Below the pieces are notes generated by a model. It saw only the letters and a program-made list of their open reading frames with translations, searched no databases and was not told the origin of the DNA. From Baffinella frigidus (Eukaryota; Cryptophyceae; Cryptomonadales; Baffinellaceae): a stretch of 22,641 bases of DNA. The stretch spans positions 130,567 through 153,207 of the forward strand of contig MU647195.1 in assembly GCA_026770585.1 (NCBI GenBank), in the 5' to 3' direction. Both the position numbers and the translations under genes were made by a program. Numbering within the stretch: the first letter of the stretch is position 1; every line of letters begins with the position of its first letter. Positions 6,575 through 22,641 of this stretch are shown here, in pieces.

Positions 6575-6641
<67 letters not shown>

Positions 6642-7828
6642 ACCCCAAACCCAGAACCCTAAACCCCAACCCCTAATCCCTGAACCCCACACCAGGTGTG
6701 CTGTTCAGAGACGTCAAAGGCTTTCTCTCGGGGCCCGGCGTTCCTCTACCCCCAATCGACGATGCCATCACCACAATCGTGACGTGCGAGTCAGGCGGGG
6801 TCGTCTTTGCCGAGAAACTCGCAGCGTTTTGGGGGCTTGGGCCTCCGGTGGTGATCAGGAAAGTGAGGGCAGAGGATGCAGACGGGGGGATGGTGACGTT
6901 TGGAGGGTCGTTTGTGTCCGGGGTAAACCCTAAGCCCCACACCCTAAACGCCATACCCTCAACCATCAACCCTGAACCTTGAACCCTGAACCCTGAACCC
7001 TGAACCCTGAACCCTGAACCCTGCACCCTGAACCCTGAACCCTGAACCCTGAACCCTGAACCCTGAACCCTGAAATCCCTCAACCCTACACCCTCAACCA
7101 GGTGCGCACCACGTTCGCGTTGGAGCCATTTATCGTACTTCCCTCCCGCGGCGTCCTGTTCGTGGATGACGTCTTGTCCTCGGGTGAGACGCCGCTGCCC
7201 CAACCCTTAACCCTAAACCCTGAACCCTAAACCCTAAACCCCAAACTCGTCGCACCTGCCAGGGACACAGCGTGCATCCTTTAGGTCCTCTAGGTTCTTC
7301 GAGCTTCCAACATAGGCGGACACCGGAACTTGTTCTGCAGAAAAGCCATGCTTCCTTTCGGATCACATTCAGGCCCCCCGGTGCACAGGATCGCGGCAGA
7401 AACGTGCTAAAGGGCTGCCCCAACCCTTAACCCTAAACCCTCAACCCTCAACCCCAAACCCTCAGCCCTAAACCCCAAGACCAACCCCTTAACCCTAAAC
7501 CCCAACCCCCAACCCCCAAACCCCAAACCTAACCTCTAAACCCTGAACCCTGAACCCTGAACCCTGAACCCTGAACCCTGAACCCTGAACCCTAAACCCT
7601 AAACCCTAACCCCCACCCCCTTAACCCTAAACCCCAAACCCCCAACCCTAAACCCCAATCCCAACACCAGGAGAGACGGCGCTTGCGGTGGGTAGACTGC
7701 TTCGCCGGGCTGGAGTCGGCGGGACCAAAGCGTGGTTCGTGGCGGAGTTCTTGGGGCATCAGAGGGACCCGGCGCTGAACGAGCTGTTTGCTGAGATGAC
7801 TTCGATGGTCAAGTTTGAAGGGACGTGA
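5535..7828 (+). CDS. Phosphomevalonate kinase (animal type) fused to adenine phosphoribosyltransferase-like domain, 5 exons
   Basis: Exons are 5535-6201, 6344-6511, 6696-6922, 7102-7183 and 7671-7828. All junctions are GT-AG, phases 1,1,0,1 agree, and the product is 433 residues. Residues 1-19 (MASMAVLLLIAMVVTTVDA) look like a signal peptide. Residues about 72-240 resemble animal PMVK, which converts mevalonate-5-phosphate to the diphosphate: the P-loop GRKNTGKDF (79-87), LGLDLDRLL, YKEAHR (134-139) and KRQSD are visible. Residues about 263-433 resemble APRT: LRERIMAIPDFPRAGVLFRD spans the exon 2/3 junction, VVIRK follows, and VDDVLSSGET (375-384) is the PRPP-binding loop. The start is the first ATG in the open frame (context GCCACGATGG); a GTG-only extension reaches 5421. 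The APRT part looks shortened after the first strand, and the usual DSRG is ESGG (310-313). Introns consist of telomere-like repeat. The domain identities are clear; enzymatic activity is not established. Confidence 0.9.
6202..6343 (+). repeat. Intron 1 of the PMVK-APRT gene, telomere-like throughout
   Basis: The donor is GACT|GTAAACCCT and the acceptor TTAAACCAG|GTGTCG. Between them are only CCCTAAA, CCCTGAA, CCTGAAG and CCTGACG units. The donor itself (GTAAACCCT) is one base from the repeat unit. Confidence 0.85.
6512..6695 (+). repeat. Intron 2 of the PMVK-APRT gene, CCCTCAA array
   Basis: Donor GCTG|GTACGCCC and acceptor CACACCAG|GTGTGC enclose CCCTAAA units and a run of about twelve CCCTCAA heptamers (6573-6646). 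Confidence 0.85.
6923..7101 (+). repeat. Intron 3 of the PMVK-APRT gene, CCCTGAA array
   Basis: Donor CCGGG|GTAAACCCTAAG and acceptor CAACCAG|GTGCGC enclose about a dozen near-perfect CCCTGAA heptamers (6968-7075). Confidence 0.85.
7184..7670 (+). repeat. Intron 4 of the PMVK-APRT gene, telomere-like arrays around a dispersed repeat
   Basis: Donor TCGG|GTGAGACG and acceptor AACACCAG|GAGAGACG. Telomere-like DNA on both sides flanks a dispersed element at about 7271-7372. The string GCTGCCCCAACCCTTAACCC occurs near the donor (7193) and again after the element (7412), so the start of the intron was probably duplicated around the insertion. Confidence 0.8.
7271..7372 (-). mobile_element. Dispersed short repeat, GGAAGCATGG type, inside PMVK-APRT intron 4
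   Basis: Reverse copy nearly identical to the one at 5016-5107, including the trailing CAGGCCCCCCGGTGCA. Confidence 0.75.
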
Positions 7829-7850
7829 GGCCATGGCTGGTGATGCTTAG

Positions 7851-7977: not shown

Positions 7978-8084
7978 GATAAGACATCATGCTTTGCTGT
8001 TTTTCTGGCGGTTGCGGCCAGTAGACTGCTCCCCCGAGGGGGCGTCGGCGGCACCACCAAAGCGTTGTTCGTGGCGGAGTTTTT

Positions 8085-8159
8085 CAGGTCCTTTAGGTTC
8101 TTCGCGCTCCCACCGTAGGCGGACACTGCAACTTATTTGCAGAAAAGCCATGCTTCCTT
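8085..8159 (-). mobile_element. Dispersed short repeat, GGAAGCATGG type, interrupting the duplicated exon
   Basis: CAGGTCCTTTAGGTTCTTCG to CATGCTTCCTT breaks the duplicate exon between GGCGGAGTTTTT and CTCGGGGCATC. Confidence 0.75.
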
Positions 8160-8403
8160 CCTCGGGGCATCAGAGGGACCCGGCGCTGAACCAGCTGTTT
8201 GCCGAGATGACTTCGATGGTTGTGAGCCTCGGTCGGACAGGTGATGAGCCTCGGTGGTTGACTAATGAAGGTACGTTCTCTCTCGCTTGTGTGTGGGCCT
8301 TGGCCGGCGCGGCCTCTCTCCTCCCAAGCGGGGTCTCATCTGGGAGCGAAGGTCGGTAATGTCAAGTTTGAAGGGACGTGATGCCATGGCTGGTGATGCT
8401 TAG

Positions 8404-8572
8404 TACATGGGGTACCTCGCTCATACATGTAAGAAACTGCCTCCGCCTAGGACCCTACAGTAGGACTATGCCTAGTGCCCCCCCCCCCAGGACCACTATG
8501 TAGGGCCCTAGGCATAGTCCTACTGTATGGTCCTAGGGGGAGGCAGTTTTTTATGAGCGAGGTATCCCTCTG
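8404..8572. mobile_element. Foldback element, TACAGGGGTACC family, copy 4, in the duplicated segment
   Basis: Same flanks as copy 3 on both sides (GATGCTTAG before, TGCTTTGCTGTTTTTCTGG after) with an extra internal repeat of about 40 bp. Confidence 0.8.
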
Positions 8573-8701
8573 GATAAGAAACCATGCTTTGCTGTTTTTC
8601 TGGGAACAAAATTTCGAAAGAACGAATGCGTTGGAAGTGCAGTTTCTTAAACAGGCCCACTTCGCTCGCAGCCATCCCCGGGAAATGAACAGAGCGAGTT
8701 T

Positions 8702-8839
8702 ATTTCGAAAGATAACTGAATCACTTCCCTATGAGCGTTTTCACTTTAATTAGGAGGCCTAATTAAATTCACTATGCCCCAACTAATTTCTGCTATTCAA
8801 CCTCCTAGTGAAAAGGAACTGATTCAGTTATCTTTCGAG
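8702..8839. mobile_element. Inverted-repeat element
   Basis: TTTCGAAAGATAACTGAATCA (first 20 bases at 8703) is mirrored by TGATTCAGTTATCTTTCGA ending at 8838. AT-rich centre. Confidence 0.7.
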
Positions 8840-8871
8840 ATGAAAGTCGGGCGGGGCCCGGGCGCCAGCGT

Positions 8872-8912
8872 GTACAGGGGTACCTCGCTCATGAGAAACT
8901 GCCCCCCCCCTA
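8872..8912. mobile_element. Half element, TACAGGGGTACC family
   Basis: Only the left arm (TACAGGGGTACCTCGCTCAT then GAGAAACTGCC) is present. Confidence 0.7.
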
Positions 8913-9036
8913 CCACCAGCCCCCTAAAGGATCACAGCGAGACCAAATGCCTGATTTCGAGACGTGTGATCCAGGCACATTTAGGGCTTTAAAACATTGT
9001 ATCCCGGGGTGTCACGTCCAAAATATGTAAACAAAA

Positions 9037-9102
9037 GAGTTTACTACACGCGACTGGGATCACGTGACCGGTCACGTCCTCCCTGTAGCGTGTAGTAAAC
9101 TC
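9037..9102. repeat. Inverted repeat GAGTTTACTACACGC
   Basis: 15-bp perfect arms around CACGTGACCGGTCACGTC, itself palindromic. Confidence 0.75.
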
Positions 9103-9308
9103 GAGAAAAGAGTCGTGCGAAAAACAAATAGGCGTTGGGTCCTGGTCACGGACCACATCTGTCAAGGACACCTGGTCGCGTCCGGAGCCTGGTACACACT
9201 TTTAAAAATATATCGTTTTTGTCAGCGGGGTCTTTTCGACCCCGCTGACCCCTAAAATCCAAGATCTGAGAATCGAGGATTTGGTCTTACCGTGAGGGTT
9301 AGTGGTAG

Positions 9309-9391
9309 GGACCACCATAGGGCCCTGGGCATAGGCCTACTGTAGGGTCCTGGGGGGGGGGCGGTTTCTTATGAGCGAGGTGCCCCTGTAT
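9309..9391. mobile_element. Half element, TACAGGGGTACC family, right part
   Basis: Core GGACCACCATAGGGCCC and the right arm TTATGAGCGAGGTGCCCCTG, without a left arm. Confidence 0.7.
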
Positions 9392-9460
9392 GGCGCCAGA
9401 GTTGTCAACGCTGCAAGCCCCGTGTGTCACACAGAGTCTCTTGTCTTTCGTTAATTTACC

Positions 9461-9501
9461 TCCCCACACGTGGCACGGACTTAAGGGAGTGACACGTGTG
9501 G
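9461..9501. repeat. Inverted repeat CCCCACACGTG
   Basis: CCCCACACGTG and CACGTGTGGGG enclose about 20 bases. It lies between the convergent PMVK-APRT and TBL1 genes. Confidence 0.6.
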
Positions 9502-9895
9502 GGGGACATGTCATGGCTTGGAGCCATTCCCCATATCGAAAGTGAATCTACGTTGTGGAGTCCTCATAACCTTGCATCCTTAGGTGCCCTCAGAGCCTGG
9601 ATGCACACACGAGTGTATGGTTGACCGAAGTTTATTGACAGCAGCTAGCCCCACGACTCGCAAGGTTCGCGACAGGACGCCAGACACCCTGGCATCACGT
9701 TGCCCCCTGCGGCAGCTCCCCTCTGCACGTCCTTCACCCCGTCCGGACGCGACTGGGCGAGATGATCAGGTGACTGGACGAGACATCTCGCGGGCGGACG
9801 AGATGATGAGGTGACGAGGCGGGTCCCAGGCGTAGCCGGGACCCGCGCCAGGACATGTAAAGCGACTCGAGTGGAGCAACTCGAGTAAAGCGACT

Positions 9896-12800
9896 CTACA
9901 TCTTGAAGTCCATGACCGTGACGACTTTGTTGAAGAAGGACGCGGCGACCTTGTCGCCTGTGCTCAGGGCTTAGGGTTTATGGTTTATGGTTTAGGGTTG
10001 TAGGGGTTCCAGGTTCCGGGTTTGGGGTTCAGGGTTCAGGGTTCAGGGTCTTGCCTGTGCTGTTCCACGCAACCTCGAAGAGGCCCGACCCCCCAGGTTC
10101 AGGGTTCAGGGTTCAGGGTTCAGGGTTCAGGGTTCAGGGTTCAGGGTTCAGGGTTTAGGGGGTCCGGGTTCCGGGTTCCGGGTTCCGGGTTTCAGGTTTC
10201 AGGTCTCGGGTTGAGGGGTTCGCCTGTGCTGTTCCGCGCAACCTCGAAGATGCTCGACACCCCAGGTTCAGGGTTCAGGGTTTAGGGGGTTCGGGTTTCA
10301 GATTTTAGGTTTTAGGTCCCGGGTTTCGGTTTCAGGGGTTTAGGTGGTTGCCTGTGCTGTTCCACGCAACCTGAAAGATGCCCGACCCCCCAGGTTCAGA
10401 GTTCAGGGTGTCGGGTTTCAGGCTTCAGGTTTCGGGTTCCGGTCTTGGAGTTTCGGGGTTAAGGTTCAGGTTCTCGCCTGTGCTGTTCCACGCAACCTCG
10501 AAGATACCCGAGCCCCCCCGCAGCGATCGCACCAGTGACCCGTCCTGCACGTGGAAAAAGAGAAATTGGGTTTGATAAATTGGGTTTGATAAATTGTCAA
10601 ATACGACCGCGACGAACCAGGAGGACCATCCACCCCGGTCAACATACAGGGGTATCTCGAATACAAGAACCCACACCCTCCTGGGGCCCTGCGGTGGGCC
10701 TTACCCCTAGGACCCAGTGGTGGTCCTATGGGGGTCCTACGGAAGGGTGTGGGTTCTCGTATTCGAGTAACCGAGTACGACGAGACTGCCTGCACAGGAA
10801 GTTCACAGGGGGGGGGGGTCGGAGGGGAGAGAGGAAACAGCCCTGCCAATGAACCCGCTCTACCTCCCACCCTCCTGTTTCAGACACTGAATTCAAGTGT
10901 TGCCGGGCAGGCATGGCGTAGGGGGAAGAGGGGGCTGGTGGCGCCCATGGCGGGATCGAATCAATCCTACAGGTTCTAAAGGTGCATACCTTGCCAAGAC
11001 AAATGGTTTGAACGCGTCATAGCTCGAGTGTTTGCAAACTAACATTTTGTGAAGGTATGCAGACCTTGACGTCTCACACGCGGATAACTTGCCAAGCGGA
11101 ATGGCGCTTGGGGAGGGGGGGTTCAGAGAAGGGGAGAGGGCCAAAGAGGAACGGGGAATACCTTGACGTTCCAGACATGGAGACACTTATCGAAGGAGCC
11201 CGTCGCCACGAGATCCCCCGTGGGGTTGAAGGCCACGCTGTACACTGGCTCCGTGTGCTTGGCTAGCGTGAAGATGCACTCCCCCTTCTCCATATCCCTG
11301 TGACCACATGCGGAAAAATATTGAGGCCACGCTATACACTGGCTCCGTGTGCTTGGCTAGCGTGAAGATGCACTCCTCTTTCTCCATATCCCTGCGATGG
11401 GGGGAAAGCGGGGGTTAATACATTGTCACACACGACCGTGATGAGTTAGAGGGCGAGGTGAGGCGAGAGGTGAAGGCAGCCTGGCAGCCCTTGACCGCAC
11501 CCAGCCGTTGGTTGATTACAAATCCACCGTCAAGCTGATTTCAAAGGCAAACTATTTTTATTTAAATCATTGCTTTTCAATGAAAATTACTACACGTTTA
11601 CTTTAATATTACTAGTAAAGATCGTGCGGTGTAGAAAATTTCAGTACCGCAATGTCTTAAAATTATATCAGTTTTGCTATGAGATTGGGGTAAAATCGGA
11701 CCGCATGGGCTAAAATTCCCGCAGCCTTTCGTAGCCCGCGGTGTGGGAGAGCGAGGCGCGGACCACAAGTTGACGAGCGAGTCGAACGACGCGGCATGGA
11801 GGGGGGGGGAGGGGAGGGCGGGCGTGGAAGGAGAGGGAGGATTAGGGAGTGGACAGGGTGTAGGGTGTAGGGTAGGGTGTAGGGTGTAGGGTGTAGGGTG
11901 TAGGGTGTAGGGTGCAGGGTGTAGGGTGTGGGGTGTAGGGTGTAGGGTTCATGGTTGACGGTTTCAGAGGGTTGGGGAGCGCACCACAACTTGACGAGCG
12001 AGTCGAACGACGCGGTCGCGAGGAGTAGTGGCTTGTTCGGGTTCTTCGTCCCGGGCCCCGTCGGTGACCACCTGCAACACACCACCGAGTTACAGCCTGG
12101 CAACGTCACCAATTCCCACACACATCCTCTAAATCAGGTTTTACTTAACCACATGCAGGTTTTAGGCGGCGAACCGGTCACCCCTCCTTGCTACACGCTG
12201 CACACTGAATGATCATTTCCCCTGTGACAGGGGGTAGGTAGCGGCGGAAGCGGCGGATAACACCACCGAAACCACCGTTTTTTCATGGCGCGACAAAACA
12301 CCACGAAAAAAACACCGATACTGTACATCACCACATTTCGGGAAACTATCGCCCACGAAACCGTCAACGTCTGGCGGCGCAAACGTTTGAAGTGCGGCCG
12401 TGCAGGGTCCGCGGTGCAGTGCAACGAAACACTGACTAGCTACTCAGCCACCTGGCAGCGTGACTAGCTAGCTAGTTTCCTGGCACACCGGGATGTGACG
12501 CCACTGGGCGCTGCTCGCCGGCATGGCGACCATGCGGCCGCCATGCCGGTGAGCAGCGCCAAGTGGCGTCACGGCCGCTGCAGCTGACGCGCGCTAACCG
12601 CTACAGGGGTACCTCGCTCACCAGGAGCCACGCCCCCCCCAGGACCACCGTAGGGCTACAGGTGCGGGCCTGCTGTAGGGTCCTCGGGGGGCGCGGCGCT
12701 GCTCGCCGGCAGTGCGAGCAGTCAGCGGCACCACGGCCGCTGCTGCCGCTAACGCGCGCAAACAACCACACCCTCACCCCGAACCCTATACCTGAATAGC

Positions 12801-15800
12801 CGTCACGTGTCAGGGCAATGTGGAGGGGGCCCTGGCATTTCGCATGGCGGCAGGTGTTGGGAAATGCACGGTAGAGGGGTTCGGGTGTGGCTCAGGGCGG
12901 GGCGCAACTTGATGGTGTAGATCTCTTTTGTGTGCAGCCTGAAGTCGTGCAGCGGCTCGTCTTGCTTCACTGACCACACCTTCGTTGAGGGTTCAGGGTT
13001 TGGGGTTTGGGGTTTGGGGTTTCGGGTTGAGGGCGGGCATGCTTCAGGGCTTCGGGTTTACGCGTTGGGGTTTCGGGTAAGTGTTTATGTATTATATTTT
13101 ATAGGCGATAGTTTCTGGTGTGAACACTCCTGTGCGCGCGGGCGGGCAGGCGTCAGGGCTTCGGGTCTACGCGATGGGGTCTGACCACACTACACCCTGA
13201 AGGCGAATAAATAAATAATAATAATAATAATAATACGTAATAATGATAATAATACGCCTAAACCCCAAGCGGGCGGGCGGGCAGGAGTCAGGGCTTCGCG
13301 ACTACGCGTTGGGGTTTCGGGTCACTTCTTAGTGATGATAGTTTCTGGTGTGACCACGCCTGTGCGCGCGGGCAGCGTTGAGCGTTTCGGGGTTTGGGTG
13401 TACACCCCGCAGCTTCTTTCGGATTTCGGGTTTCGTGTTTCGGGTCTACGCTTTGGGGTTGAGGGTACATGTGTTTAGGGCTTCTGGTTTGGGGTTTAGT
13501 GTGGCGAGACCGCGAACGGGACTCACTGACCAACCCACCCGAGGAATACGCGTCCTGGCGCGAGTGTTTGCAACGCACCAACATATCTTGTGATTTTTGC
13601 CGGGAATATCCCACTTTTGAAAAGCGCACTTCGAAATTCCCAGAAAAAGACGCAGAGAAATACTACCAGATATCGGACCCTGTTTCCTTAGGCAACTACG
13701 CAGAGCTAGGACGCGTTGGAGGGTCACCCCCCACCGCACGGGTCGCTACCCACACTATGAACCGGGCTTCCATTGTTGGAAGCTGAGGGCAAGTGCAAAG
13801 AATTGGCCTGAGCCAAATATTTTGCAGGATTCTATGTTACTAAACCTGCCCTGCTCGAGTTAAGTCAACAGAGAGAGAGCGCGAGCGCGCGCACGAGAGA
13901 TAGAGAGAGCGCGCGATTAAGAGAGAGATAGAGAGAGAAAGGCCTGCACGTTGTTGGGAAATGAGGGCAAGTGTAAAGAATTGGCCGGAATGCACATTTG
14001 CAGTGTCATCGTCAGAGCAAGAGGCATGCATCGTCACCAGAGAGAGAGCGAGCGAGCGAGCGAGAGAGAGAGCGAGAGCGCGCGAGAGAGGGCGAGCGAG
14101 AGAGCGAGCGAGCAAGCGAGAGAGAGAGAGAGCGAGCGAGAGAGAGAGAGAGAGGGAGGGAGGGGGGGAGAGAGAGACGCACCTTTGCAGTGTAGTCGTC
14201 AGAGCAAGAAGCAAGCATTGTCCCCGTCGGATCCCACTTGATCGCATTCACCTCGTCTGTATGCCCCTGCACCCAGAGAGAGAGCGAGTTGCGTTATTGA
14301 GGTGTACAACTGAGCGGGACTACAGAAAACCACCTATATCAATATGCTCAAGGCTCAAGGGCCATCGAGGTGTGCGCAGCGTCAGGGGCTCGTTGCCCCC
14401 AGAGCGATTCATCAATACTGTGGATCAAGGTCGGAGAAAAGCCCTTGGATCAAGGTTTGCGCAAACCTCGTCTGTATGCCCCTGCATCGAGGTGTGCGCA
14501 GCGTCAGGGTTACTCCGGAGTCCCTGGATCCTTGTGAGGACCATACCATACCCCACCCTACCCTACCCTACCCTACCCTACCCTACCCTGCCCTACGGCC
14601 GTGGTGCAGCGGGCCGCGAACCCCCAAACTCTAGATATACCCAAGGTTGCAGCCAGGTCGAGGCTAGAGACCAGGCCTGGTTAGAAAATGATCAGCACAT
14701 ACAGATGACCGGAGAGAGAGCAAACCAGCAATGCCTGAAATCCGGGCCGGGGGAAGAAAGATGTGTGCTTTCGGGCGTCCAATTTTTTTTTGCAAACGAG
14801 AGGTGTATATCAGCAGCTGAAGGAGGGGGGGGGGCGGGGAGGGTAGGCGAACCCGAAATTCTTTGACTGGCTTCTCCTCCCCAATTTTGCACACGTAGAT
14901 CACCTTGTCGGTTGAGCACCTGCCCCCGTCCAGAAAACACGCGTTATTTCGCATGGCACGCAGACAGGCACATCAGGTCCCGGCGTGGAGTACCGTCTCT
15001 GGCACGAGTTCCAGTCGCACGAGGTGCGCCCCACGCCACCACACATGCCTTGCCTCTCCCCAAAAGTCACCACGCGCCACTTTCCCACTTTCCCACTTTC
15101 CCAGGAAGTGCAACTGAGAAGGGCGCCAGCCGACCATATGATACGACCCCCTATGATAAGCCCCCCCACGATACGACCCCCTATGATACGCCCCGCCCGC
15201 GGAGCGCCACTTTCTGGAAAAGTGGAAAAGTGGCGCTCGCCCTGTGAGGGGAAGCGGCAGCCATTTTTGGAAAGCCCTTTCTGGGAAAACCCAGCGACCC
15301 CAAACCCCCCTCTACGTTGGTGCAAGTTCAGGGGCACGCTAGCCTTCCGCGGAGGACTTGTCCACCGCACGCGGGCAGGGTCCACGCTCCATTTCCTATG
15401 TTTATGCCTACGGGGATGCATTCAAGGTCTCTCAGCATAGATGGCTGCACCGTCAAGCCTCCGGTTTCCCCACACCCCACCCTATTCCGCACACCGCACA
15501 CCCGCTGTGGTGTGAGCTCTCGGGTGGAGGCGGGGGATTGCCGTTGCGAAACCACGCCAGAACAAAATCAAACACAACAAGACGTGGTGTTGCGATGTCA
15601 CACGCGAACGACCAGAAACAAAGCAAGGCTTGACGGTGTGGTGGGGTGTAACGTTGCGGAGGAACCACACGAAAACAACCGCGAACAAAGCCCGACTTGG
15701 CGGGGGGATGGAGGGAGCGGGGTGAGACGTTGCACAGGAACCACCCGAGAACAACCAGAAACAAAGCACGGGTTGGCGGTGGGAGAGAGGGCCGTCTCCT

Positions 15801-16350
15801 GAACCAAACCGGCACCCCCCTGAGGCAATGGTTCCGGAGGTCTCTCGGGGCAGAGATAGGTCCGGGGGGTGGAGGGAGCGGCGTTTCGTAAGGCTCATAG
15901 ACTTTTGTATCACTCAACTCAAGGCTCAAGGGCCTACCTAGGACCTGTATCGCGAGTAATAAAGAAGAAGAAGAGAGGGAGCGGGGTGAGACGTTGCGAA
16001 GAAACCACCCGAGAATTACCCAAGAACAACCGCAAACAAACAAGGCGGGGTGGGGTACAGGGTGCGGGGGCGAAACCACACCACAACAACAATACCAAAA
16101 AATCTTGGCGGGGGGGTTGCACGGAGCGGGGGCATACGTTGCGAAGGAACCACCCGAGAAAAATCAGGAACAAAGCAAGGCTTGGCATTCTGTAAATTGG
16201 AGCTTAGCGACTGCCTTCATGAACTGTTAGGCTGGTGTGTATGCCTTGCAGTCAGGAGGCATATACACACGCTTATGGGTGGAGGGAGCGGGGTGTAACG
16301 TTGCGAAGGAACCACCGGAAAACAACCGAACACACAGCAGGGGTTGACGG

Positions 16351-16384
<34 letters not shown>

Positions 16385-18787
16385 GCCTCTCTCTCTCTCT
16401 CTCTCTCTCCCTCTCTCTCTCTGCCTCTCTCTCTCTCTCTCCCTCTCCCTCTCTCGTTCTTGGTGGAGGGAGCGGGGGCAGACGTTGCGAAGGAGTTCGA
16501 GTTCCGCCAGTCTACATCCAGCGTCGGCGCCGAATGGAACTGAAACTGCACACGTTCGAAAAAGGACTCCAGAATCAGGTTCTCTCTTCGAAACAGGTTG
16601 CGAGCCTCAGCTTGTATCATGCCAAAAAGGGAGCTTCTCTCATGCCAAAAAAGGGAGCAAGACTCAGCTTCCAAAAGCAGCAAAACTCAGCTGAAGCAAT
16701 TCGCCACGATGCTGGGAGGTCACGCAACTTTTGAGAGTGTTTCAACTTTTGAGGTTGAGGATGCTGAGGCGGGTCCGTCATAAGGCGACTATTGGATCAC
16801 TCAACTTGAGGCTCAAGAGTAATCAAAAAGATGAAGATGCTGGGAGGAGGTGAGTGCGCAGCTTCAACGCTTCCTAGCTCTGCCTCAGTCGGGGGGTGGC
16901 TGACTATTCTTAAGTCAACATGCTGGGCGTGTGGCACAAATCCGTCAACTTTGCAGCGGAGAAGATCCTGCTCTCACCAAATTGGCGGTACCAAATAGAC
17001 AGCTAGCGAGAGACGCTTCCGCACTCCACGTCAGACAAGGCGAGCACAGAGACGCTCGCTCTGCAAGCCAGGATAGGCAAAAAAACGAAGCAGCTCATAA
17101 TCCACAGTTCGATATACGGATGCCTAGGGAATTGCGGCACGAACGCCTACCACGTAATGCGAAAAGCTAACGCCATCGGACCCCTTAGCCTGCGGTAGGA
17201 ACCTCCCCTCCTCCTACGACGTTGGAAACAAAAAGGTATTTGAACTTCGCAGGAGGGGGGCTCCTACCGTAGGCAATCCGTAGGCTCTAAGTACCTCGCT
17301 GGCGTTAGCTTTTCTTTCAGATGACACGCACGACCTCGAGACGCACCGCTAACAAACAACATGCTTCGTTTCTGGAACCTGGCCTCCGTGGGGGGAATGC
17401 ATGATGATGGCAACGCTGGTATCAAAAATCGTCCAGTGTCGTTTCGAGTGGGTCGTTTCAACAATTATCCAGTGTCGTTCCGGAACGACCCACTCGAAAC
17501 AATGATCTCCCGCCGTTTCGAGTGTCGTGAGGGTAGGGGGTAAGGACCTGTTGCATGACATCCCCCGTCTTGGTGTCCCACACCACCGCTGTCTTATCGA
17601 CGCTCCCCGTCAGCAGCAGCGACCCCGTGCGGTTCCACTTGAGCGAAAACACTGGGCCTGTTTCGGGTTTCGGGTTTCGGGTTTAGGGAGAGCGATAGCA
17701 CAGCACACGTCCGCCTCGCCAGGCTGCACTGCCGACCTACACTCCTACCAGCCGCTGAGACGCAGGGTAGCGAGGCACTGCCAGGCCCCGTGGGTTGGCA
17801 GGAAATTGCAATCGGACACGGTTTGTGGGTGACGCGAGAGTTTTACGACTCTTGGCCGATGAGAGTTTTTTCGGATGCCAAGGGTTTGCTACCGTCCCCG
17901 GTAGAAAACGTGTGCGGGGCAGTGAAACAGGACACGCGGATGGGGCTCCCCATGTGAGGAAGGGAGAGGTGCGGCAGCTCGGGTTCCGGATTTGGGGATT
18001 CGGGATTCGGGGGCGAGACGCGCCTTTATGCCGCGACAGCGTCATCACCAGCTTCCCTTGCTCGTTCCAGATGCGCGCCTGCCCACACCCCGCGCTAGTC
18101 AGGAACCGAAGAGGATGCGGCGGCAGCAGCTGGGGGCAGAGGAGGGGTGGGCGGGAGAGAGGGCGGGGGGGGGCGCTGGACCTGCCCGTCGTAAGAGCCA
18201 GTCGCGAGGAGGGTGCCGTCAGCGTTCCAGTCCAGCGTGGTCACGTCCTTGGCCTTCTCGTTGGAGGCGGCGTTGACGTGCTCGAGCACGTGCCACTGCG
18301 TGTTGCGCTCCGCCTCTGCGCCAGACTCCCCGGCGGGTATGTGCCAGATGCGCGCTGAGGAATCGCCGGATCCAGACGCGAGGAGAGATTTCACGGGGTT
18401 CCATGCCACCGTGAACACCTCGTTCTCGTGGCCGGAGAGATTGGTGACTTTGGAGGGTTCGATTTCGACGCCGTCCTGATCCATGGCATCCCCCGCCTCC
18501 TCCTTGTCGTCGTTTCCGTCCCGCACGTGGCCGGGCAGCAGAAGCGACATCTTGTCGTCCCCTGTGTCGATCTCTTCGCCGTTGTCGTCGATGTGCTGCT
18601 CAATCTCGACGTACATCATCCCCTTCTGCACGAAGGAGATGAGCGACCCCGGCGGGACATCCGCCCCGTTGATGTTCGCCTTGGTCACAAGGCTCTCGTT
18701 CGCGAAGGAGAACGCTGTGTGCGTGTATCCCGACTCAAGGAGGTAGCGGTACACCAGATAGTTCAGCTCGTCCGACGTGAGCGACAT
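9896..18787 (-). CDS. TBL1/TBL1XR1/HOS15-family LisH-WD40 co-repressor protein, complete, 11 exons
   Basis: Exons on the minus strand are 18787-18182, 18078-18024, 17657-17548, 16545-16484, 14919-14853, 14266-14183, 12979-12909, 12071-11985, 11297-11162, 10544-10478 and 9957-9896. They total 1407 nt, or 468 residues plus TAG, and every phase agrees. The N-terminus ([20 protein letters not shown]) is the LisH dimerisation motif, followed by the F-box-like stretch [19 protein letters not shown] and an acidic linker. Eight WD40 blades follow, with family landmarks [44 protein letters not shown] and [13 protein letters not shown]. In animals such proteins scaffold NCoR/SMRT-HDAC3; in plants HOS15 works with histone deacetylases and a CUL4 ligase. 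A nuclear chromatin role is inferred from the family. Introns 2 and 10 need GC donors. Introns are long (103-1564 nt) and full of exon-fragment copies. Family assignment is secure. Confidence 0.95.
9970..10477 (-). repeat. TBL1 intron 10: three copies of the exon 10 3' end alternating with telomere-like repeat
   Basis: GCCTGTGCTGTTCCACGCAA (plus strand), the complement of the last bases of exon 10 plus its GC donor, recurs at 10053, 10222 (one change) and 10350; the live exon copy is at 10476. Spacings are 169, 128 and 126 bp. Between copies lie CCCTGAA units (sense strand), best seen at 10097-10155. Each copy can still be translated much like the exon ([10 protein letters not shown]). Confidence 0.85.
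10645..10772. mobile_element. Variant foldback element in TBL1 intron 9
   Basis: Ends TACAGGGGTATCTCGAATAC and GTATTCGAGTAACC, inner arms AGAACCCACACCC and GGGTGTGGGTTCT, core CCTAGGACCCAGTGGTGGTC. It resembles the TACAGGGGTACC family with a changed arm. Confidence 0.7.
11325..11391 (-). pseudogene. Partial copy of the 5' part of TBL1 exon 9, with its own acceptor
   Basis: This 67-nt copy of exon 9 (11297-11231) lies 94 bp upstream in the sense direction. It has an acceptor, CGCAG|GGATATGG, and reads [20 protein letters not shown]. It then runs into unrelated sequence, and reading through into the true exon shifts the frame. The full exon at 11297-11162 is therefore the functional one, and this is a decoy or pseudo-exon. 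Confidence 0.8.
11757..11795 (-). pseudogene. Copy of the 3' end of TBL1 exon 8 inside intron 8
   Basis: CTTGACGAGCGAGTCGAACG and the next bases of exon 8 (plus strand from about 11989) recur here with few changes. The minus-strand frame reads [10 protein letters not shown] against [10 protein letters not shown] in the exon. The two copies are separated by the CCCTACA-type array at 11856-11950. Confidence 0.8.
11856..11950 (-). repeat. Telomere-like array in TBL1 intron 8
   Basis: Plus strand shows about twelve GGGTGTA units, so the sense strand of TBL1 reads CCCTACA. It separates the pseudo and real 3' ends of exon 8. Confidence 0.85.
12495..12572. mobile_element. Compact GC-rich palindrome in TBL1 intron 7
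   Basis: GTGACGCCACTGGGCGCTGC is mirrored by GCAGCGCCAAGTGGCGTCAC. A partial copy of the inner arm (GGCGCTGCTCGCCGGCA) lies near 12694. Confidence 0.75.
12601..12691. mobile_element. Truncated TACAGGGGTACC-family element in TBL1 intron 7
   Basis: Left arm CTACAGGGGTACCTCGCTCA and the core CAGGACCACCGTAGGGC are present; the right arm is missing. Confidence 0.7.
12960..13500 (-). repeat. TBL1 intron 6 donor-distal part: G-rich telomere-like stretches and duplicated segments
   Basis: GGGTTTGGGG and GGGGTTTCGGG stretches occur near 12990-13075, 13308 and 13386-13500. GATAGTTTCTGGTGTGA(A/C)CAC with CCTGTGCGCGCGGGC occurs twice (13107 and 13337), as does CAGG(A/C)GTCAGGGCTTCG. The (AAT)n microsatellite at 13206-13255 lies between them. 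Sense is C-rich. Confidence 0.65.
13206..13255. repeat. AAT microsatellite
   Basis: AATAATAAT run with a few interruptions, within TBL1 intron 6. Confidence 0.9.
13867..14177. repeat. GA/GCGA-rich simple sequence
   Basis: Two blocks of AGAGAGCGAGCG-type sequence (about 13867-13940 and 14039-14177) flank the pseudo copy of exon 6 in TBL1 intron 6. The long Arg/Glu/Ser open frames here are an effect of the repeat. Confidence 0.9.
13995..14037 (-). pseudogene. Copy of the 3' end of TBL1 exon 6 inside intron 6
   Basis: TTTGCAGTGTCATCGTCAGA (plus) matches the end of exon 6 at about 14184-14203 with two changes. The minus-strand frame reads [10 protein letters not shown] against [10 protein letters not shown] in the exon. 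The copies are separated by a GA/GC-rich simple-sequence block. A further flanking duplicate (GAGGGCAAGTG.AAAGAATTGG) occurs near 13788 and 13963. Confidence 0.75.
14466..14486 (-). pseudogene. Copy of the 5' start of TBL1 exon 6 with its acceptor, inside intron 5
   Basis: CCTCGTCTGTATGCCCCTGC (plus) is identical to the first bases of exon 6 plus the CAG acceptor (14252-14271). It sits about 215 bp upstream in the sense direction, next to a duplicated ATCGAGGTGTGCGCAGCG segment (14364 and 14488). Confidence 0.75.
14551..14596 (+). repeat. CCCTA pentamer array in TBL1 intron 5
   Basis: About nine CCCTA units on the plus strand. Its orientation is opposite to the other telomere-like arrays in this gene (sense is G-rich here). 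Confidence 0.85.
15530..16483 (-). repeat. TBL1 intron 4: about six tandem copies of the exon 4 donor junction
   Basis: The live junction in sense is CTCCTTCGCAAC|GTCTGCC. Its complement ACGTTGCGAAGGA recurs, with small changes, at 15541, 15651, 15727, 15991, 16136 and 16298, besides the exon itself at 16482. Each is followed in the sense direction by a CCCGCTCCCTCCACC-like stretch and is preceded by GAACAACC and CAAAGCAAGG-like sequence, so units of about 80-160 bp were duplicated repeatedly. Confidence 0.8.
16351..16455. repeat. CT-rich simple sequence
   Basis: CTCTCTCT with CTCCC and CTGCC interruptions just downstream (sense) of the exon 4 donor of TBL1. Confidence 0.9.
17162..17313. mobile_element. 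Foldback element in TBL1 intron 3, AAAAGCTAACGCCA ends
   Basis: AAAAGCTAACGCCA and TGGCGTTAGCTTTT at the ends, CCTGCGGTAGGA and TCCTACCGTAGG inside. Confidence 0.75.
17441..17500. repeat. Short inverted repeat in TBL1 intron 3
   Basis: GTTTCGAGTGGGTCGTT and AACGACCCACTCGAAAC, with CCAGTGTCGTT repeated directly between them. Confidence 0.75.
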
Positions 18788-19558
18788 CCTCGCCCACGCC
18801 GAATATCCCCCTCAAGTCCCCCCCCCGGGCCCTGCCGCACTCCCTCCTCTCACGCCCGCGGACCCAGCGGGTCCCCGCCACGTTTCCAGCGACGGGCACT
18901 GGCTTCCCCGCGGCCCCGCGCCTTCTTTCGGGAAGAAAAAAACTGTATCACCCGCCCAGGATATCCTCCTCGCGCCACGCCCTCACTCTCGGCGTCGGGG
19001 GGGACCGCTAAGGAGGGCCGGAGGGAAGAAGGAAGGGCCCCTCTGCTGCGTCGAGGAAAAGTTAGGTCAACGAGTTGATCTAAAATTTTCTGACCTCATC
19101 ACCTGAGGAAATGCAGAATTGACTTTGTGTTGTGGGTTGACTTTCAAGATTTGATTTGATTTGGTTTGGTCGTCAACATTTTTCAGTTCGAAAGTCGGGA
19201 TCGAGTGCGAGCGGGGTTGCGAAGGTGAGGGGCAGGGAATGCGTCCTTGGTGGGTTGTTGCATCTGAGCCGCGGCGTTGAACCCCACAGAACCACCGCCA
19301 CCGATGTAAAACTCACCTCGCAGCACATATGTTCCTCAGCAGGGTGCAGAGACCTCTGGATTTCGTCCGTGGAACCGGCAGCGTCTTTTTTGCATCTTCT
19401 TATGCTGTCGCTCAGCATTTCACCCCAGGATGCTGCGGCGAGCCAGGGTAGGTTTGCTGTGTAGCGCGTTCCACCTCAGCAGGCGCGCTGCTGCTGTTGA
19501 GCCCTTCCAACAGAGCGACTCAGCCGCGCCCACTCCACCGCGCAGCCAGGCCGCGAGG
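18788..19558. promoter_or_regulatory. Shared intergenic region of the divergent TBL1 and KAP3 genes
   Basis: The TBL1 start codon (18787, minus) and the KAP3 start (19559, plus; or 19430) face away from each other across at most 771 bp. Promoters and 5' UTRs of both genes should lie here. The stretch next to TBL1 is very C-rich on the plus strand, with an AT-richer middle near 19080-19190. I see no convincing TATA box. It lacks the telomere-like arrays and foldback elements that fill the rest of the window, which fits selective constraint. Confidence 0.55.
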
Positions 19559-21883
19559 ATGGCCCCGGTCGTAGACGGGGAGAAGTCGAAGCGCAAGGTG
19601 CGCCCGGGGCTGATCGAGAGCGACCCCGTCGAGAGCGCCATCCTCGTCCACTATGAAGTCGAGGAGATTGTCGACGGACAGGTAACTCCTCCCACCTGTC
19701 AGCACGGTCGATCTTACTGGCTGGGGAGGAGAGGTCGGCGCTTGGGCGGCTTTGGCGGTCGGTTAGTCGGGCGCTGACTTCCTGAGGCTCCAGACGCGTG
19801 CGAGAGGCCAGCCGGAGGTTACGGATCCGGTAACCGCAGACGGACACGCCTCCACATTCTCCACTGCAAACCACCAGCAACCCGTAGCAGCTTTTACCGG
19901 ATCCTTGCAAGAATCCGGGTAGAGCCAATGTGGTAGGACTTGGCCAAAGCGAACTTCGAAGTTAGAAGATGCGAACTTCTAGATGGACCCTTGTGGACAT
20001 GTAGCGTTTTAAATTCAAATTTTGCAGTACAAATCATGTTGTTGACTAATAATTACGGTCCATCTAGAAGTTCGCATCTTGCAAGTTCGAAGTTCGATTT
20101 GGCCAAGTCCTACCACATTGGCTCTATGAGAAAAAAGAGTTTTATTTGTTCGTAGGACCCTACGGTAGGAGGCCCTAGGGACCTGGATATTGCTGACGGG
20201 GAGATTCAAGCAGATATCCTTGGTTTGGCTGAAAATTACTACAGTACCCGACCCAGCTTATAAGATGCTGCTGGTGGTACTGCGTTGCTGGTCCGCGCCG
20301 CTGCAGCAAGGGAAAGCCTACCTCTGTCTCAGTCTAGTTGGGCCCACCAATTTGGTGAGCCCGGGCTCTTTCCCGCTCCACAGTTGCCGAATCTGTACCG
20401 TAGACCCAGCATGTCAGCTTGAGAATAGTCGGCCAGCCCTAGTGAGGCAGTGCTAGGATATGGACCAGAGGGATGCATGGAAACGCGTGCAGCTCCCGGA
20501 TGCATGGAAACGCGTGCAGCTCCCGTCATCATTTGCCTCTGCGATCAACAACCTGCCTCCTCTGAGATCCGCCACCCGGTGAAGGGGTTGTTGGTCTCCA
20601 CCACTCTGCCCCCCCCTCCCTCCATCAGCAGCGAGCGCTTCGCCGAAGATTGGATCCAATCTACGGCGAAGATCCCTAACGTTGGCAACGTTAGGGATGG
20701 GGACCATCGGGCGATCCGCAGGCTTGGCGGCGCAGGTACCACGACGCGCTGGAACCCGCCACCCGGGGGGCTTGGTGTCGAATCGACTCCGGAAGAGTGT
20801 TCACGTTGATTACGATCTGGCAACGAAAATTACTACACAGGTGTTTTACTATTACTTGTAAGGACCAACTGTGTGGTAATTTTCGTTGCCAGATCGTATT
20901 GACCTTGAATACTCGGCGGGATTAAGTAGACCTGGCAGGTAACCGGTGGGATCGACGGCGAAGCGCTGCTGATGGAGGGGGGGGGGGGCAGGGTGGTGGA
21001 GAGGAGGCAGGGTACCCACAGAAGGGGAAGCACTAGGGGTGAAGTCTGGGGACAAGTCCTGTGTAAAGTCACTCCGGCTATTCCTAGACGGGATTGTCCC
21101 CAGACCCTAAACTCTCAACGCTAAATGCTAGACGGTGAGCAGATGGTGCACACCCTAAAATCTCACCCCTCACCTCTCAATCCTCAACCCTCACCCCTCA
21201 ACCCTCACCCCTCACCCCTCACCCCTCACCCCTCACCCGTCACCCCTCACCCCTCACCCCTCACCCCTCACCCCTCAACCCTCAACCCCAAACGCTAAAT
21301 CCGAAACCCCTTGACAGGTTGTGGAGAGGAAGCAGGCAGTGAAGAAGGTGAAGCTGACCTCGCTCTCATCGGACAGCGACTTGAACGCCGTCGCTCAGGT
21401 CTTCGCTGCAAACCCTCAACACCAACCCCGAAAACCCGAAAGCCGAAACCCGAAAGTCGAAGCCCGAAACGCGAAACGCGAAACGCGAAACGCGAAACGC
21501 GAAACGCGAAACCCCAACCCTCAACCCGAAATCCGAAACCTGAAACCCGAACCCCCAATCCCACGATCTGATCCCCAACGCCGTCACTCAGGTCTTCTTG
21601 TCGAACCCTTAACCCTCAGCCCGAACCCCTAAACCCTCAACCCGAACCCCTAAGCCCAAAACTCGAACCCCTAATCCCTAACCCCCAATCCAACGATGTG
21701 ACCCTAAACCCTAAACCCCAAACCCTCACCCCTCACCCCTCACCCCTTAACTTTAAAACCCGAAACCTAAGACCGAAACCCTAAAACCTAACTCCCACAC
21801 ACTCCCACGATCTGACCCTGAAAGGTCTCACGCAGGATGTTGTCGACAAGTGCAAGCTCGTCTCCCAGAGCAAGCTCCCCATG
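19559..21883 (+). CDS. Kinesin-associated protein 3 (KAP3), N-terminal exons; gene continues past the window
   Basis: Exons seen are 19559-19681, 21318-21398 and 21836-21883, all phase 0 with GT-AG introns. Exon 1 gives KSKRKVRPGLIESDP then ESAILVHYEVEEIVDGQ. Exon 2 gives VKKVKLTSLSSDSDLNAVAQ and exon 3 DVVDKCKLVSQSKLPM. These align in order with the N-terminal region of metazoan KIFAP3 (KRKV, ALIVHYEVE, KIIRLKSL, EECKLIHPSKL), from memory of the family. KAP3 is the armadillo-repeat non-motor subunit of heterotrimeric kinesin-II, which drives anterograde intraflagellar transport. I chose ATG 19559 because KAP3 proteins begin shortly before KRKV. An in-frame ATG at 19430 would add 43 residues, but it sits just after CACCCCAG, a possible 3' splice site. 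A second copy of exon 3 lies at 22232-22303. The armadillo repeats lie outside the window. Confidence 0.85.
19921..20125. mobile_element. Foldback element, AGAGCCAATGTGGTAGGACT family, well preserved, in KAP3 intron 1
   Basis: Inverted arms of about 70 bp: AGAGCCAATGTGGTAGGACT at the left, AGTCCTACCACATTGGCTCT at the right, with AGATGCGAACTTCTAGATGG mirrored inside. No coding capacity. Confidence 0.85.
20472..20525 (+). repeat. Direct repeat, about 27 bp twice
   Basis: GGATGCATGGAAACGCGTGC followed by AGCTCCC occurs twice in a row in KAP3 intron 1. Confidence 0.85.
20599..21003. repeat. Widely spaced inverted repeat in KAP3 intron 1
   Basis: CCACCACTCTGCCCCCCCCT then CCATCAGCAGCG and CGCTTCGCCG (20599-20645) are mirrored by CGGCGAAGCGCTGCTGATGG and the following G run (20956-21003). 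The arms enclose smaller hairpins (AACGTTGGCAACGTT) and the foldback element at 20811-20925. Confidence 0.7.
20811..20925. mobile_element. Foldback element, second copy of the TACGATCTGGCAACG family
   Basis: Near-perfect 29-bp inverted arms (20811-20839 and 20870-20898) around a short loop, followed by CTTGAATACTCGGCGGG, which is the reverse complement of the flank at the copy near position 110. Partial relatives containing GAAAATTACTACA occur near 930, 11581 and 20230. Confidence 0.8.
21098..21317 (+). repeat. CCCCTCA array at the end of KAP3 intron 1
   Basis: A run of CCCCTCA and CCCTCAA units (densest 21172-21290) leads into the acceptor CTTGACAG|GTTGTGG. C-rich strand is sense. Confidence 0.85.
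21399..21835 (+). repeat. KAP3 intron 2, telomere-like and GAAACGC repeats
   Basis: Contains six GAAACGC units (21467-21508), CCCTAAACCC and CCCCTCA stretches, and recurring CACGATCTGA near 21562 and 21807. The acceptor is CTCACGCAG|GATGTTG. Confidence 0.8.
21577..21597 (+). pseudogene. Copy of the KAP3 exon 2 3' end and donor, inside intron 2
   Basis: AACGCCGTCACTCAGGTCTT matches 21384-21403 (one change), which is the last 15 bases of exon 2 plus the GTCTTC donor. About 190 bp of CCGAAACG and CCCTCAA-like repeat lies between them. Confidence 0.8.
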
Positions 21884-21903
21884 GTCCCCCGCCCGCTCGG
21901 TTC

Positions 21904-22011
21904 ATCCCTTAAGTGGCGCGGGGGTCTCAAAGGACCCCCTACAGGTCCTAGGCAGGTCCGAGGGCCCTACGGTAGGGCGTATGCGCCTACTCGCCACTTA
22001 CTTAAGTGGGG
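21904..22011. mobile_element. Foldback element, third copy of the CCTTAAGTG family, in KAP3
   Basis: ATCCCTTAAGTGGCGCGGGG at the left and CTCGCCACTTACTTAAGTGG at the right, lying between the two copies of KAP3 exon 3. Confidence 0.75.
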
Positions 22012-22060
22012 ATACGATCCGACTGAGGCAGAGCTAGGAAGCGTCGAAGCTTCATAGGCT

Positions 22061-22208
22061 AACGGCCTGAAAACGGGGTAGTTAGGCATACGGCATTGCC
22101 TAGGACCTCCTACCGTAGGCCAAGGGATCCTAAGACCAAAAAGTCTCGGCCTACGGTAGGAGGTCCTAGGCAATGCCGTGTGCCTAACTACCCCATTTTC
22201 AGGCCGTT
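22061..22208. mobile_element. Foldback element, AACGGCCTGAAAACGGGGTA family, copy 1
   Basis: Arms of about 62 bp (AACGGCCTGAAAACGGGGTA at left; its complement ends at 22208) with CCTAGGACCTCCTACCGTAGGC cores (20 of them shown: CTAGGACCTCCTACCGTAGG). It lies between the two KAP3 exon 3 copies. Confidence 0.85.
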
Positions 22209-22231
22209 ACCCCATTAAGCTGTGCACGCAG

Positions 22232-22303
22232 TCGCCCGCCCCTTCTGGTTCTTGGTTGCTTATCGACAAGTGCAAGCTCGTCTCCCAGAGCAAGGTCCCC
22301 ATG
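22232..22303 (+). CDS. Duplicate KAP3 exon 3 (alternative or pseudo-exon)
   Basis: Bases from 22263 to about 22307 repeat 21843 to about 21887 almost exactly, at a shift of exactly 420 nt. The copy has its own CACGCAG acceptor ending at 22231 and an open phase-0 frame reading SPAPSGSWLL then IDKCKLVSQSKVPM. The first copy reads DVVDKCKLVSQSKLPM. Both are followed by the same ATG|GT potential donor. Only one is expected in a normal KAP3, so they could be mutually exclusive exons or one may be dead. The first copy keeps the more family-like residues before DKCKL. The DNA between them carries two foldback elements. Confidence 0.5.
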
Positions 22304-22333
22304 GTCGCCCCCCCCCCCCGCCTCCACACACCA

Positions 22334-22500: not shown

Positions 22501-22537
22501 TGATGAGTAGGATCTCATCGCGCCGAGTTCATAGGCT

Positions 22538-22641
22538 AACGGCCTGAAAATGGGGTAGTTAGGCCTACGGCATTGCCTAGGACCTCCTACCGTAGGCCGA
22601 GGGATCCTAGGACCAAAAAGTCTCGGCCTACGGTAGGAGGT
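22538..22641. mobile_element. Foldback element, AACGGCCTGAAAATGGGGTA family, copy 2, cut by window end
   Basis: Same left arm and loop as the copy at 22061-22208; the right arm runs off the window. Confidence 0.85.

What the first reader, a model, noticed from the sequence alone, without database searches (positions are those of the whole stretch)
9958..22310. Splice-junction fragments repeatedly duplicated into introns of all three genes
At least nine separate cases are visible. Exon 3' ends with their donors: TBL1 exons 4, 6, 8 and 10, KAP3 exon 2. Exon 5' starts with their acceptors: TBL1 exons 6 and 9. Whole or terminal exons: KAP3 exon 3 and the last PMVK-APRT exon (7671-8605). The copies are short, sit in the adjacent intron or downstream flank and are usually separated by telomere-like DNA. 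This suggests introns grow here by tandem duplication across the exon-intron boundary, with the surplus junction left as a decoy splice site. I know of no named process that describes this combination; tandem duplication as a source of introns is an established idea, but not with telomere-like filler.
Basis: partly seen in the sequence, partly recalled or inferred. Interest (0 to 1): 0.85.

Follow-up and report, generated by a model that had tools for sequence, protein, structure and literature searches.

The report
Exon pieces copied into nearby introns
In this alga short stretches of DNA, about fifty letters long, are very often copied next to themselves, so introns are littered with leftover pieces of neighbouring exons that still look like splice sites; it resembles a known kind of repair scar, but is unusually dense.

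Summary
In detail: all nine named copies are present, and no case was matched by any of its 120 null alignments. The window ends a contig of a 382-Mb genome whose nearest TBL1 proteins are cryptophyte. In 17 kinesin loci from one Pfam search plus the window's three genes, 44 of 130 exons (16 of 20 genes) have partial direct copies in neighbouring introns or flanks: 100 copies, median 54 nt, 90% identity.

Position fits tandem duplication: 43 of 44 exon-start copies lie upstream, 34 of 34 exon-end copies downstream. But junctions are not special: introns carry local direct duplications as densely as exons (6.0 against 5.3 per kb). Telomere-like DNA is no commoner between copies (9 of 58) than in random intron segments (16%). 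Named processes exist for duplication across exon-intron boundaries and for break repair that lengthens introns.

Best reading: repair of staggered breaks duplicates about 50 nt, often around filler, anywhere; splicing hides exon-derived copies. Unexplained: copies ending flush at the splice site exceed simulation (25 of 53; only 7 of 25 in batch 2).

The parts
9896..18787 (-). TBL1-like gene, 11 exons, host of six of the nine named cases
   Evidence: spliced model gives an uninterrupted 468-aa protein; closest proteins cryptophyte; WD40
10478..10517 (-). real 3' part of TBL1 exon 10 up to its GC donor
10055..10094 (-). copy of TBL1 exon 10 end with donor (farthest of three)
   Evidence: 42/46 over 10049-10094
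10224..10263 (-). copy of TBL1 exon 10 end with donor (middle)
10352..10391 (-). copy of TBL1 exon 10 end with donor (nearest)
11230..11303 (-). real TBL1 exon 9 start with acceptor
11324..11397 (-). copy of TBL1 exon 9 start with acceptor; separated by a short non-telomeric filler
   Evidence: 70/74; the only other match of exon 9 reported in the genome search
11976..12015 (-). real TBL1 exon 8 end with donor
11755..11794 (-). copy of TBL1 exon 8 end with donor
   Evidence: 37/40
14179..14225 (-). real TBL1 exon 6 end with donor
13992..14038 (-). copy of TBL1 exon 6 end with donor
   Evidence: 40/47
14250..14271 (-). real TBL1 exon 6 start with acceptor
14465..14486 (-). copy of TBL1 exon 6 start with acceptor
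   Evidence: 22/22
16469..16494 (-). real TBL1 exon 4 end with donor (about 11 exon nt shared with the copies)
15643..16312 (-). stretch holding five related copies of the exon 4 end
   Evidence: best 25/26 at 16123-16148
21384..21420 (+). real KAP3 exon 2 end with donor
21577..21613 (+). copy of KAP3 exon 2 end with donor (thin case)
   Evidence: 30/37, score 39
21840..21894 (+). real KAP3 exon 3, nearly whole
22260..22314 (+). copy of KAP3 exon 3
   Evidence: 51/55
7671..7827 (+). real last exon of the PMVK-APRT gene
8000..8392 (+). pieces of the PMVK-APRT last exon in the downstream flank (8000-8240 split by an insert, and 8358-8392)
   Evidence: 57/60 at 8161-8220

Best explanation
The copies are scars of a general and very active local duplication process. 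A break whose two nicks lie about 30-85 nt apart is filled in on both sides and rejoined, usually with extra DNA in between, which leaves copy - filler - copy in direct orientation; at most about a quarter are plain tandem repeats. The filler is whatever was captured: telomere-like repeats, elements with inverted repeats, or unidentified sequence. It strikes exons and introns alike. When the duplicated stretch crosses an exon start, the upstream copy is the old exon start, now stranded in the intron, and the downstream copy becomes the working exon start; at an exon end the first copy keeps working and the second is stranded. Duplications wholly inside exons would break the protein and are not seen, so exon copies survive only in introns and flanks. 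Stranded copies keep a splice site but only part of an exon, so exon definition probably ignores them. Shown here: local direct copies, the position rule, equal density in exons and introns, no direct exon-exon pairs, mixed filler. Inferred: staggered breaks as the cause, neutrality of the copies, exon definition.
For: 100 copies in 44 of 130 exons of 16 of 20 genes, median 54 nt (5th-95th percentile 30-86). Position: 43 of 44 start-copies upstream, 34 of 34 end-copies downstream, as a duplication with its break in or beside the exon requires. In 44 of 58 exon sides the spacer is not itself duplicated on the far side. Pairs per kb of source: exon 5.3, intron 6.0; coverage 15.3% and 16.6%; 0 of 195 direct pairs exon-exon; batch 2: 24 exon-intron and 66 intron-intron direct pairs in 2,478 and 14,972 nt, 0 of 90 exon-exon. 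Readable parts of two loci picked only by contig number show 2.7-7.7 on the same scale, shuffles 0. Spacers of batch 1: 4 with a strong inverted repeat, 8 telomere-like, 32 neither, of 44. TBL1 exon 9: only itself and the local copy reported genome-wide. Known precedents: passages of PMC4202315 and PMC8355091 (tandem duplications from breaks with 43-nt overhangs).
Against: No empty site, relative or allele was available, so no single event is proved. Copies that stop within 6 nt of the splice site are 25 of 53 against 6-20% simulated and 7 of 25 in batch 2, which a location-blind process with uniform ends does not predict. 14 of 58 spacers match the far flank and may be plain tandem repeats, among them L023 exon 4, L026 exon 3, TBL1 exon 6 start, KAP3 exon 3 and PMVK exon 5. 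One exon has an inverted 115/116 copy (L025, weak model). An intron-birth signature found in batch 1 (8 of 75 against 1.6 expected) was absent in batch 2 (0 of 29 against 0.33). One intergenic stretch of the window (8621-9890) had no direct pair.
Confidence: 0.65

Rival explanations
1. Replication slippage or unequal exchange: ordinary short tandem repeats (minisatellites) that expand and then diverge, without break repair or captured filler.
For: 14 of 58 spacers are at least partly duplicated on the far side; 24 of 58 exon sides have more than one copy; L023 exon 3 is a near-perfect tandem repeat.
Against: In 44 of 58 sides only the end segments are repeated and the DNA between them is unrelated.
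Confidence: 0.15
2. Templated insertion: a break in an intron is patched by copying a nearby stretch (strand-annealing or polymerase-theta repair), as in repair-mediated duplication of proximal DNA.
For: Copies are short and local, and 20 of 100 do not reach a junction; such duplications, including exons and splice sites, are described in vertebrates (PMC2671141, abstract and passages).
Against: It does not predict that start-copies lie upstream (43 of 44) and end-copies downstream (34 of 34), nor the shortage of inverted copies with exon sequence (7 against 100).
Confidence: 0.1
3. A junction-aware process, perhaps coupled to splicing or transcription: the duplicated stretch tends to end at the splice site or, for acceptors, near the branch-point region.
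For: 25 of 53 copy ends lie within 6 nt of the splice site against 6-20% simulated; start-copy overhangs fall at 2-14 and 24-40 nt with 0 of 44 at 15-23 (noticed afterwards, overhang capped at 40, copies not independent).
Against: Weaker in batch 2 (7 of 25); overhang grows with identity (Spearman 0.31, n 55), as loss by divergence would give; densities in exons, exon middles and introns are alike.
Confidence: 0.1
4. Introner-like elements: mobile elements that bring splice sites and leave target duplications.
For: The L023 exon 4 spacer has long inverted repeats flush with both copies and its end supplies the acceptor AG.
Against: Only 2 of 44 spacers have an inverted repeat (score 42 or more) flush with both copies, 4 of 44 any; the flanking repeats are about 30-86 nt and variable, not the 3-9 bp given for DNA-type introners (PMC9860276, passages).
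Confidence: 0.04
5. Assembly artefact: doubled or misjoined reads.
For: One assembly only; no reads were available.
Against: Copies are diverged (median identity 90%, 5th-95th percentile 81-99%), occur in 16 of 20 genes on different contigs, and obey a position rule.
Confidence: 0.02

Closest known systems
Staggered-break repair in Daphnia introns (PMC4202315, passages)
   Same: Direct repeats left by staggered breaks, repeated in one intron, proposed to lengthen introns passively; a repeat of the exon end at the other end of the intron.
   Different: There exon-derived repeats are 4-12 bp and internal repeats mark young introns (55 of 90, against 100 of 617 established ones); here the copies are about 30-86 nt with a median identity of 90%, and found in 44 of 130 exons.
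Tandem genomic duplication across an exon-intron boundary (potato RdRp, PMC4974935, passages; review PMC3443670, passages)
   Same: A tandem duplication that spans the boundary and duplicates splice signals.
   Different: There one case, which made a new intron; here many, and most leave stranded half exons in existing introns. A signature of intron birth did not repeat in batch 2.
Small tandem duplications from Pol alpha-primase and CST at breaks (PMC8355091, passages)
   Same: Duplications of the size of the overhang (43 nt in the assay); the same complex fills in telomere C-strands, a possible link to telomere-like filler.
   Different: Shown in mouse and human cells; here only the sequence pattern is seen, and no repair gene was examined.
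Repair-mediated duplication of proximal DNA (PMC2671141, abstract and passages)
   Same: Short local copies, including exons and splice sites, attributed to break repair.
   Different: Donor and copy placed freely within 5 kb, acceptors median 147 bp; here the order around the exon is fixed.
Interstitial telomeric repeats inserted at breaks (PMC7215372, passages)
   Same: Telomeric repeats joined in at breaks, sometimes with direct duplication of the target.
   Different: Plain duplication is reported for 3 horse loci (4.5%); here telomere-like filler is a minority and not enriched between copies.

Membership tests
Staggered-break repair scars | Direct repeats on both sides of unrelated filler | tested here: met
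   44 of 58 exon sides; the other 14 have a spacer that matches the far flank
Staggered-break repair scars | Not restricted to particular sites | tested here: met
   exon 5.3 and intron 6.0 per kb; batch 2 similar. The flush-end excess is the exception
Staggered-break repair scars | One-step change against an empty site | not testable with these tools
   no relative, allele or reads at hand
Tandem genomic duplication across an exon-intron boundary | Duplicated segment spans the boundary, direct and adjacent | tested here: met
   78 of 100 copies reach one junction and 2 both, 20 neither; position rule
Tandem genomic duplication as a source of new introns | New introns flanked by repeats at both splice sites | tested here: inconclusive
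   8 of 75 against 1.6 expected in batch 1; 0 of 29 against 0.33 in batch 2
   acceptor 24 of 81, donor 21 of 80, exon middle 16 of 46, intron 27 of 144; but exon bases over 60 nt from a junction are covered less (6.6%)
   9 of 58 against 190 of 1160 random segments; 23 of 72 when all batch-1 copies, also distant ones, are counted
Introners | Filler with terminal inverted repeats and short target duplications | tested here: not met
   inverted repeat flush with both copies in 2 of 44; flanking repeats about 30-86 nt
Introners | Many copies of the same filler in the genome | not tested
   the search for the L023 filler did not complete

The most novel reading that the evidence does not exclude
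A cryptophyte nuclear genome in which staggered-break repair is a main builder of introns and leaves real-looking splice sites on half exons beside a large share of true exons, and in which part of the process is coupled to splicing or transcription: copy ends gather at the splice junction and, for acceptors, again 24-40 nt upstream, where a branch point would lie, with the telomere fill-in machinery supplying both the duplications and some of the filler.
Probability: 0.12. Interest if true: 0.85.

Novelty: new variant of a known kind. Interest (0 to 1): 0.56.

Why it matters
If the sampled density (44 of 130 exons with a copy) holds genome-wide, this genome is a natural experiment in splice-site choice: real-looking junctions on half exons lie a few hundred bases from the true ones, and using them would nearly always give a stop (55 of 58 testable copies). 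It would also be a strong case of introns growing by break repair, proposed mainly from short repeats in young Daphnia introns (PMC4202315, passages), and a warning for gene prediction in cryptophytes.

Tried and rejected
Random sampling of the genome: of 20 stretches asked for, 6 did not exist and 12 came back wholly withheld (N); only L015 (8.2 kb) and 4.1 kb of L014 were readable. I therefore sampled genes through one Pfam kinesin search, which does not depend on copies: 17 of the 22 places in its table were taken (5 left out: two on C82, and C197, C289, C391).

A palindromic-element arm was sought in viral and prokaryote contigs: 0 hits.

Rejected as main causes: telomere-like filler, exon-edge specificity, introner insertion. 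Intron birth by the same process: excess in batch 1, none in batch 2. Selection keeping the stranded splice sites: in batch 1, 19 of 20 ungapped start-copies keep AG and 16 of 16 ungapped end-copies keep GT or GC, but the alignment favours this, so I make no claim. A soft-scoring extension of the copies ran to the ends of the sequence and was discarded. Depletion of AG and GT in telomere-like arrays: weak, left. A first reading-frame test (56 of 58) left dropped exons out of the frame in batch 2; one search replaces it (55 of 58).

Rows dropped before counts: 7 of 83 kinesin exons in batch 1 (micro-exons) and 11 of 46 in batch 2 (micro-exons and low-confidence ones, picked by hand in the script before its copy search); 15 of 87 batch-1 hits with under 12 exon nt. 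Only ungapped copies with 2 or more nt of overhang entered the frame test. Models of L025, L026, L031 and L032 are weak; L020, L026, L028, L031 and L032 hold withheld stretches. Masking of simple repeats hides some copies: L018 has copies at 4 of 8 exons by the script, 6 of 8 by eye.


Full report
What the window is. The TBL1-like gene on the minus strand splices into an uninterrupted 468-aa protein. Its closest listed relatives include P0001, which a source names Hemiselmis andersenii (86% over 100%), and P0004, named Hanusia phi (84% over 97%), both cryptophytes. The other genes are a phosphomevalonate kinase domain joined to a phosphoribosyltransferase domain and the start of a KAP gene. 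So this is most likely nuclear DNA of a cryptophyte alga; the species was not identified.

The observation. All nine named cases are real. Each was realigned alone against its neighbouring region, and none of 120 alignments per case to DNA of the kinesin loci, both strands, reached its score. Two are thin: TBL1 exon 4, with about 11 exon nt, and KAP3 exon 2 (score 39). Some are arrays: exon 10 has three copies that begin at the same exon point, exon 4 five copies with a shared non-exon left part. TBL1 exon 9, searched against the whole genome, gave two matches, itself and its neighbouring copy (the tool scores only its best candidates).

A sample chosen without looking. I searched the genome with Pfam PF00225 (45 matches in 22 places) and took 17 places in two batches (then 67, 69, 73, 75). 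Exons were placed with a spliced profile alignment written for the purpose; the profile came from 110 kinesins returned, among them P0121, named Guillardia theta (83% over 100% of the L018 motor region). Telomere-like and simple repeats were masked. Batch 1 (11 kinesin loci plus the window's three genes, 95 exons) gave 87 direct hits of score 42 or more, against 9 inverted and 1 to introns of another gene. Of these, 72 direct and 6 inverted hits held at least 12 exon nt; the 72 fall in 34 exons of 10 genes. Batch 2 (6 loci, 35 exons) gave 28 direct copies in 10 exons and 1 inverted. Together: 100 direct copies, 44 of 130 exons, 16 of 20 genes, median length 54 nt, median identity 90%. Four of the 20 genes had none. 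L018 is a striking case: 4 of 8 exons have copies by the script, 6 of 8 by eye.

Position rule. Copies that reach an exon start lie upstream of the real exon in 43 of 44 cases, copies that reach an exon end lie downstream in 34 of 34. The exception, in L023 exon 3, is a near-perfect tandem repeat. Free insertion of exon pieces would not do this; a tandem duplication with the break in or beside the exon must. In 44 of 58 exon sides the DNA between the copies does not match the far flank, so it behaves as filler; the other 14 may be plain tandem repeats, and include L023 exon 4, L026 exon 3, TBL1 exon 6 start, KAP3 exon 3 and PMVK exon 5. Of 44 batch-1 spacers, 4 held a strong inverted repeat (L021 exon 9, L023 exon 4, L026 exon 3, PMVK exon 5), 8 others had telomere-like units, and 32 neither. 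In L023 exon 4 the end of the element supplies the acceptor AG; in L023 exon 1 the spacer is telomere-like; in TBL1 exon 9 it is about 34 nt of unidentified DNA.

Junctions are not special. The share of 90-nt windows with a local direct copy was 24 of 81 at acceptors, 21 of 80 at donors, 16 of 46 in exon middles and 27 of 144 inside introns. Counted as pairs, exons were copied 5.3 times per kb and introns 6.0; coverage was 15.3% and 16.6%; 0 of 195 direct pairs were exon-exon. Batch 2 agreed: 24 exon-intron pairs in 2,478 exon nt, 66 intron-intron pairs in 14,972 intron nt, 0 of 90 exon-exon. The readable parts of two loci picked only by contig number gave 2.7 to 7.7 per kb on the same scale; of two intergenic stretches of the window one gave 4.3 and one 0; shuffled sequence gave 0. 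Exon copies are noticed because exons are recognisable and constrained.

Telomere-like DNA. Of 58 spacers, 9 hold two or more CCCTNAA units, against 190 of 1160 random intron segments of the same genes and lengths. Counting all 72 batch-1 copies, distant ones too, it is 23. Introns with copies hold such units more often than introns without (56% of 32 against 33% of 55), but are also longer (median 685 against 291 nt).

What remains odd. Copy ends within 6 nt of the splice site were 25 of 53 in batch 1, against mean values of 6-20% in simulations with neutral decay and uniform overhangs up to 40, 60 or 100 nt (highest 97.5% bound 28%). Batch 2 had 7 of 25. Overhang grows with identity (Spearman 0.31, p 0.02, n 55), so decay explains part. 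Direct repeats spanning both splice sites of one intron were in excess in batch 1 (8 of 75 against 1.6), with TBL1 intron 10 the best case, but not in batch 2 (0 of 29 against 0.33).

Mechanism. The pattern matches repair of staggered breaks: fill-in of both ends duplicates the stretch between the nicks, and filler is joined in. Passages of PMC4202315 describe this for Daphnia introns and propose it as a passive cause of longer introns; passages of PMC8355091 show small tandem duplications from breaks with 43-nt overhangs through CST and Pol alpha-primase, the complex that also fills in telomere ends; passages of PMC7215372 show telomeric repeats inserted at staggered breaks with duplication of the target. 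Similar work on rice insertions and on paired nicks in plants is recalled, not read. The step from pattern to break repair is inference.

Fate of the copies. If a stranded site were used instead of the real one, the reading would meet a stop in 28 of 30 start-copies and 27 of 28 end-copies that could be tested. Only 2 of 100 copies had both splice sites. I infer that exon definition ignores the rest; no RNA was available.

Novelty. Duplication across an exon-intron boundary is known (potato RdRp, PMC4974935, passages; review PMC3443670, passages), as is break-driven lengthening of introns. In the listings of ten full-text searches I saw no title or abstract start describing this in cryptophytes; the library holds open papers only. 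What seems new is the density, the length of the copies and the lineage, though no other eukaryote genome was run through the same scripts. I class it as a new variant of a known kind.

Noticed in passing
introns of TBL1, KAP3 and PMVK-APRT in the window; introns of L016-L026: Telomere-like repeats in introns are almost always C-rich on the sense strand: 377 CCCTNAA against 13 TTNAGGG over 88 introns of 14 genes, on both genome strands. The perfect CCCTAAA unit has neither GT nor AG, so it may be the only orientation that splicing tolerates.
   Followed up: partly
whole genome G000: Perfect (TTTAGGG)6 matches, overlapping ones counted: 5,644 forward and 6,075 reverse; the places listed (first part of the list, C1 and C2) lie inside contigs.
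   Followed up: partly
window 6202-6343; L020 intron 6; L021 intron 4: Some introns are telomere-like from end to end, of the form GTAAACCCT...CAG, as if telomeric repeats had been inserted and spliced out.
   Followed up: no
window 5535-7827, + strand: One reading frame over five exons joins a phosphomevalonate kinase domain (PF04275) to a phosphoribosyltransferase domain (PF00156).
   Followed up: partly
L025 (reverse strand) 595-710 and 1052-1167: An inverted copy of a modelled exon and its flank, 115 of 116 identical; the gene model is weak.
   Followed up: no
75 introns of 14 genes: Donors are 68 GT and 7 GC, and 63 of 75 exons begin with G after the AG.
   Followed up: no
window 9958-10477 (TBL1 intron 10): The intron is flanked by an 11-nt direct repeat across both splice sites (AGCACAG|GCGA), as if born from a duplication.
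   Followed up: partly
window 22528-22641: The contig ends inside a palindromic repeat that also lies at 22051-22221 (96% identical over 114 nt).
   Followed up: no
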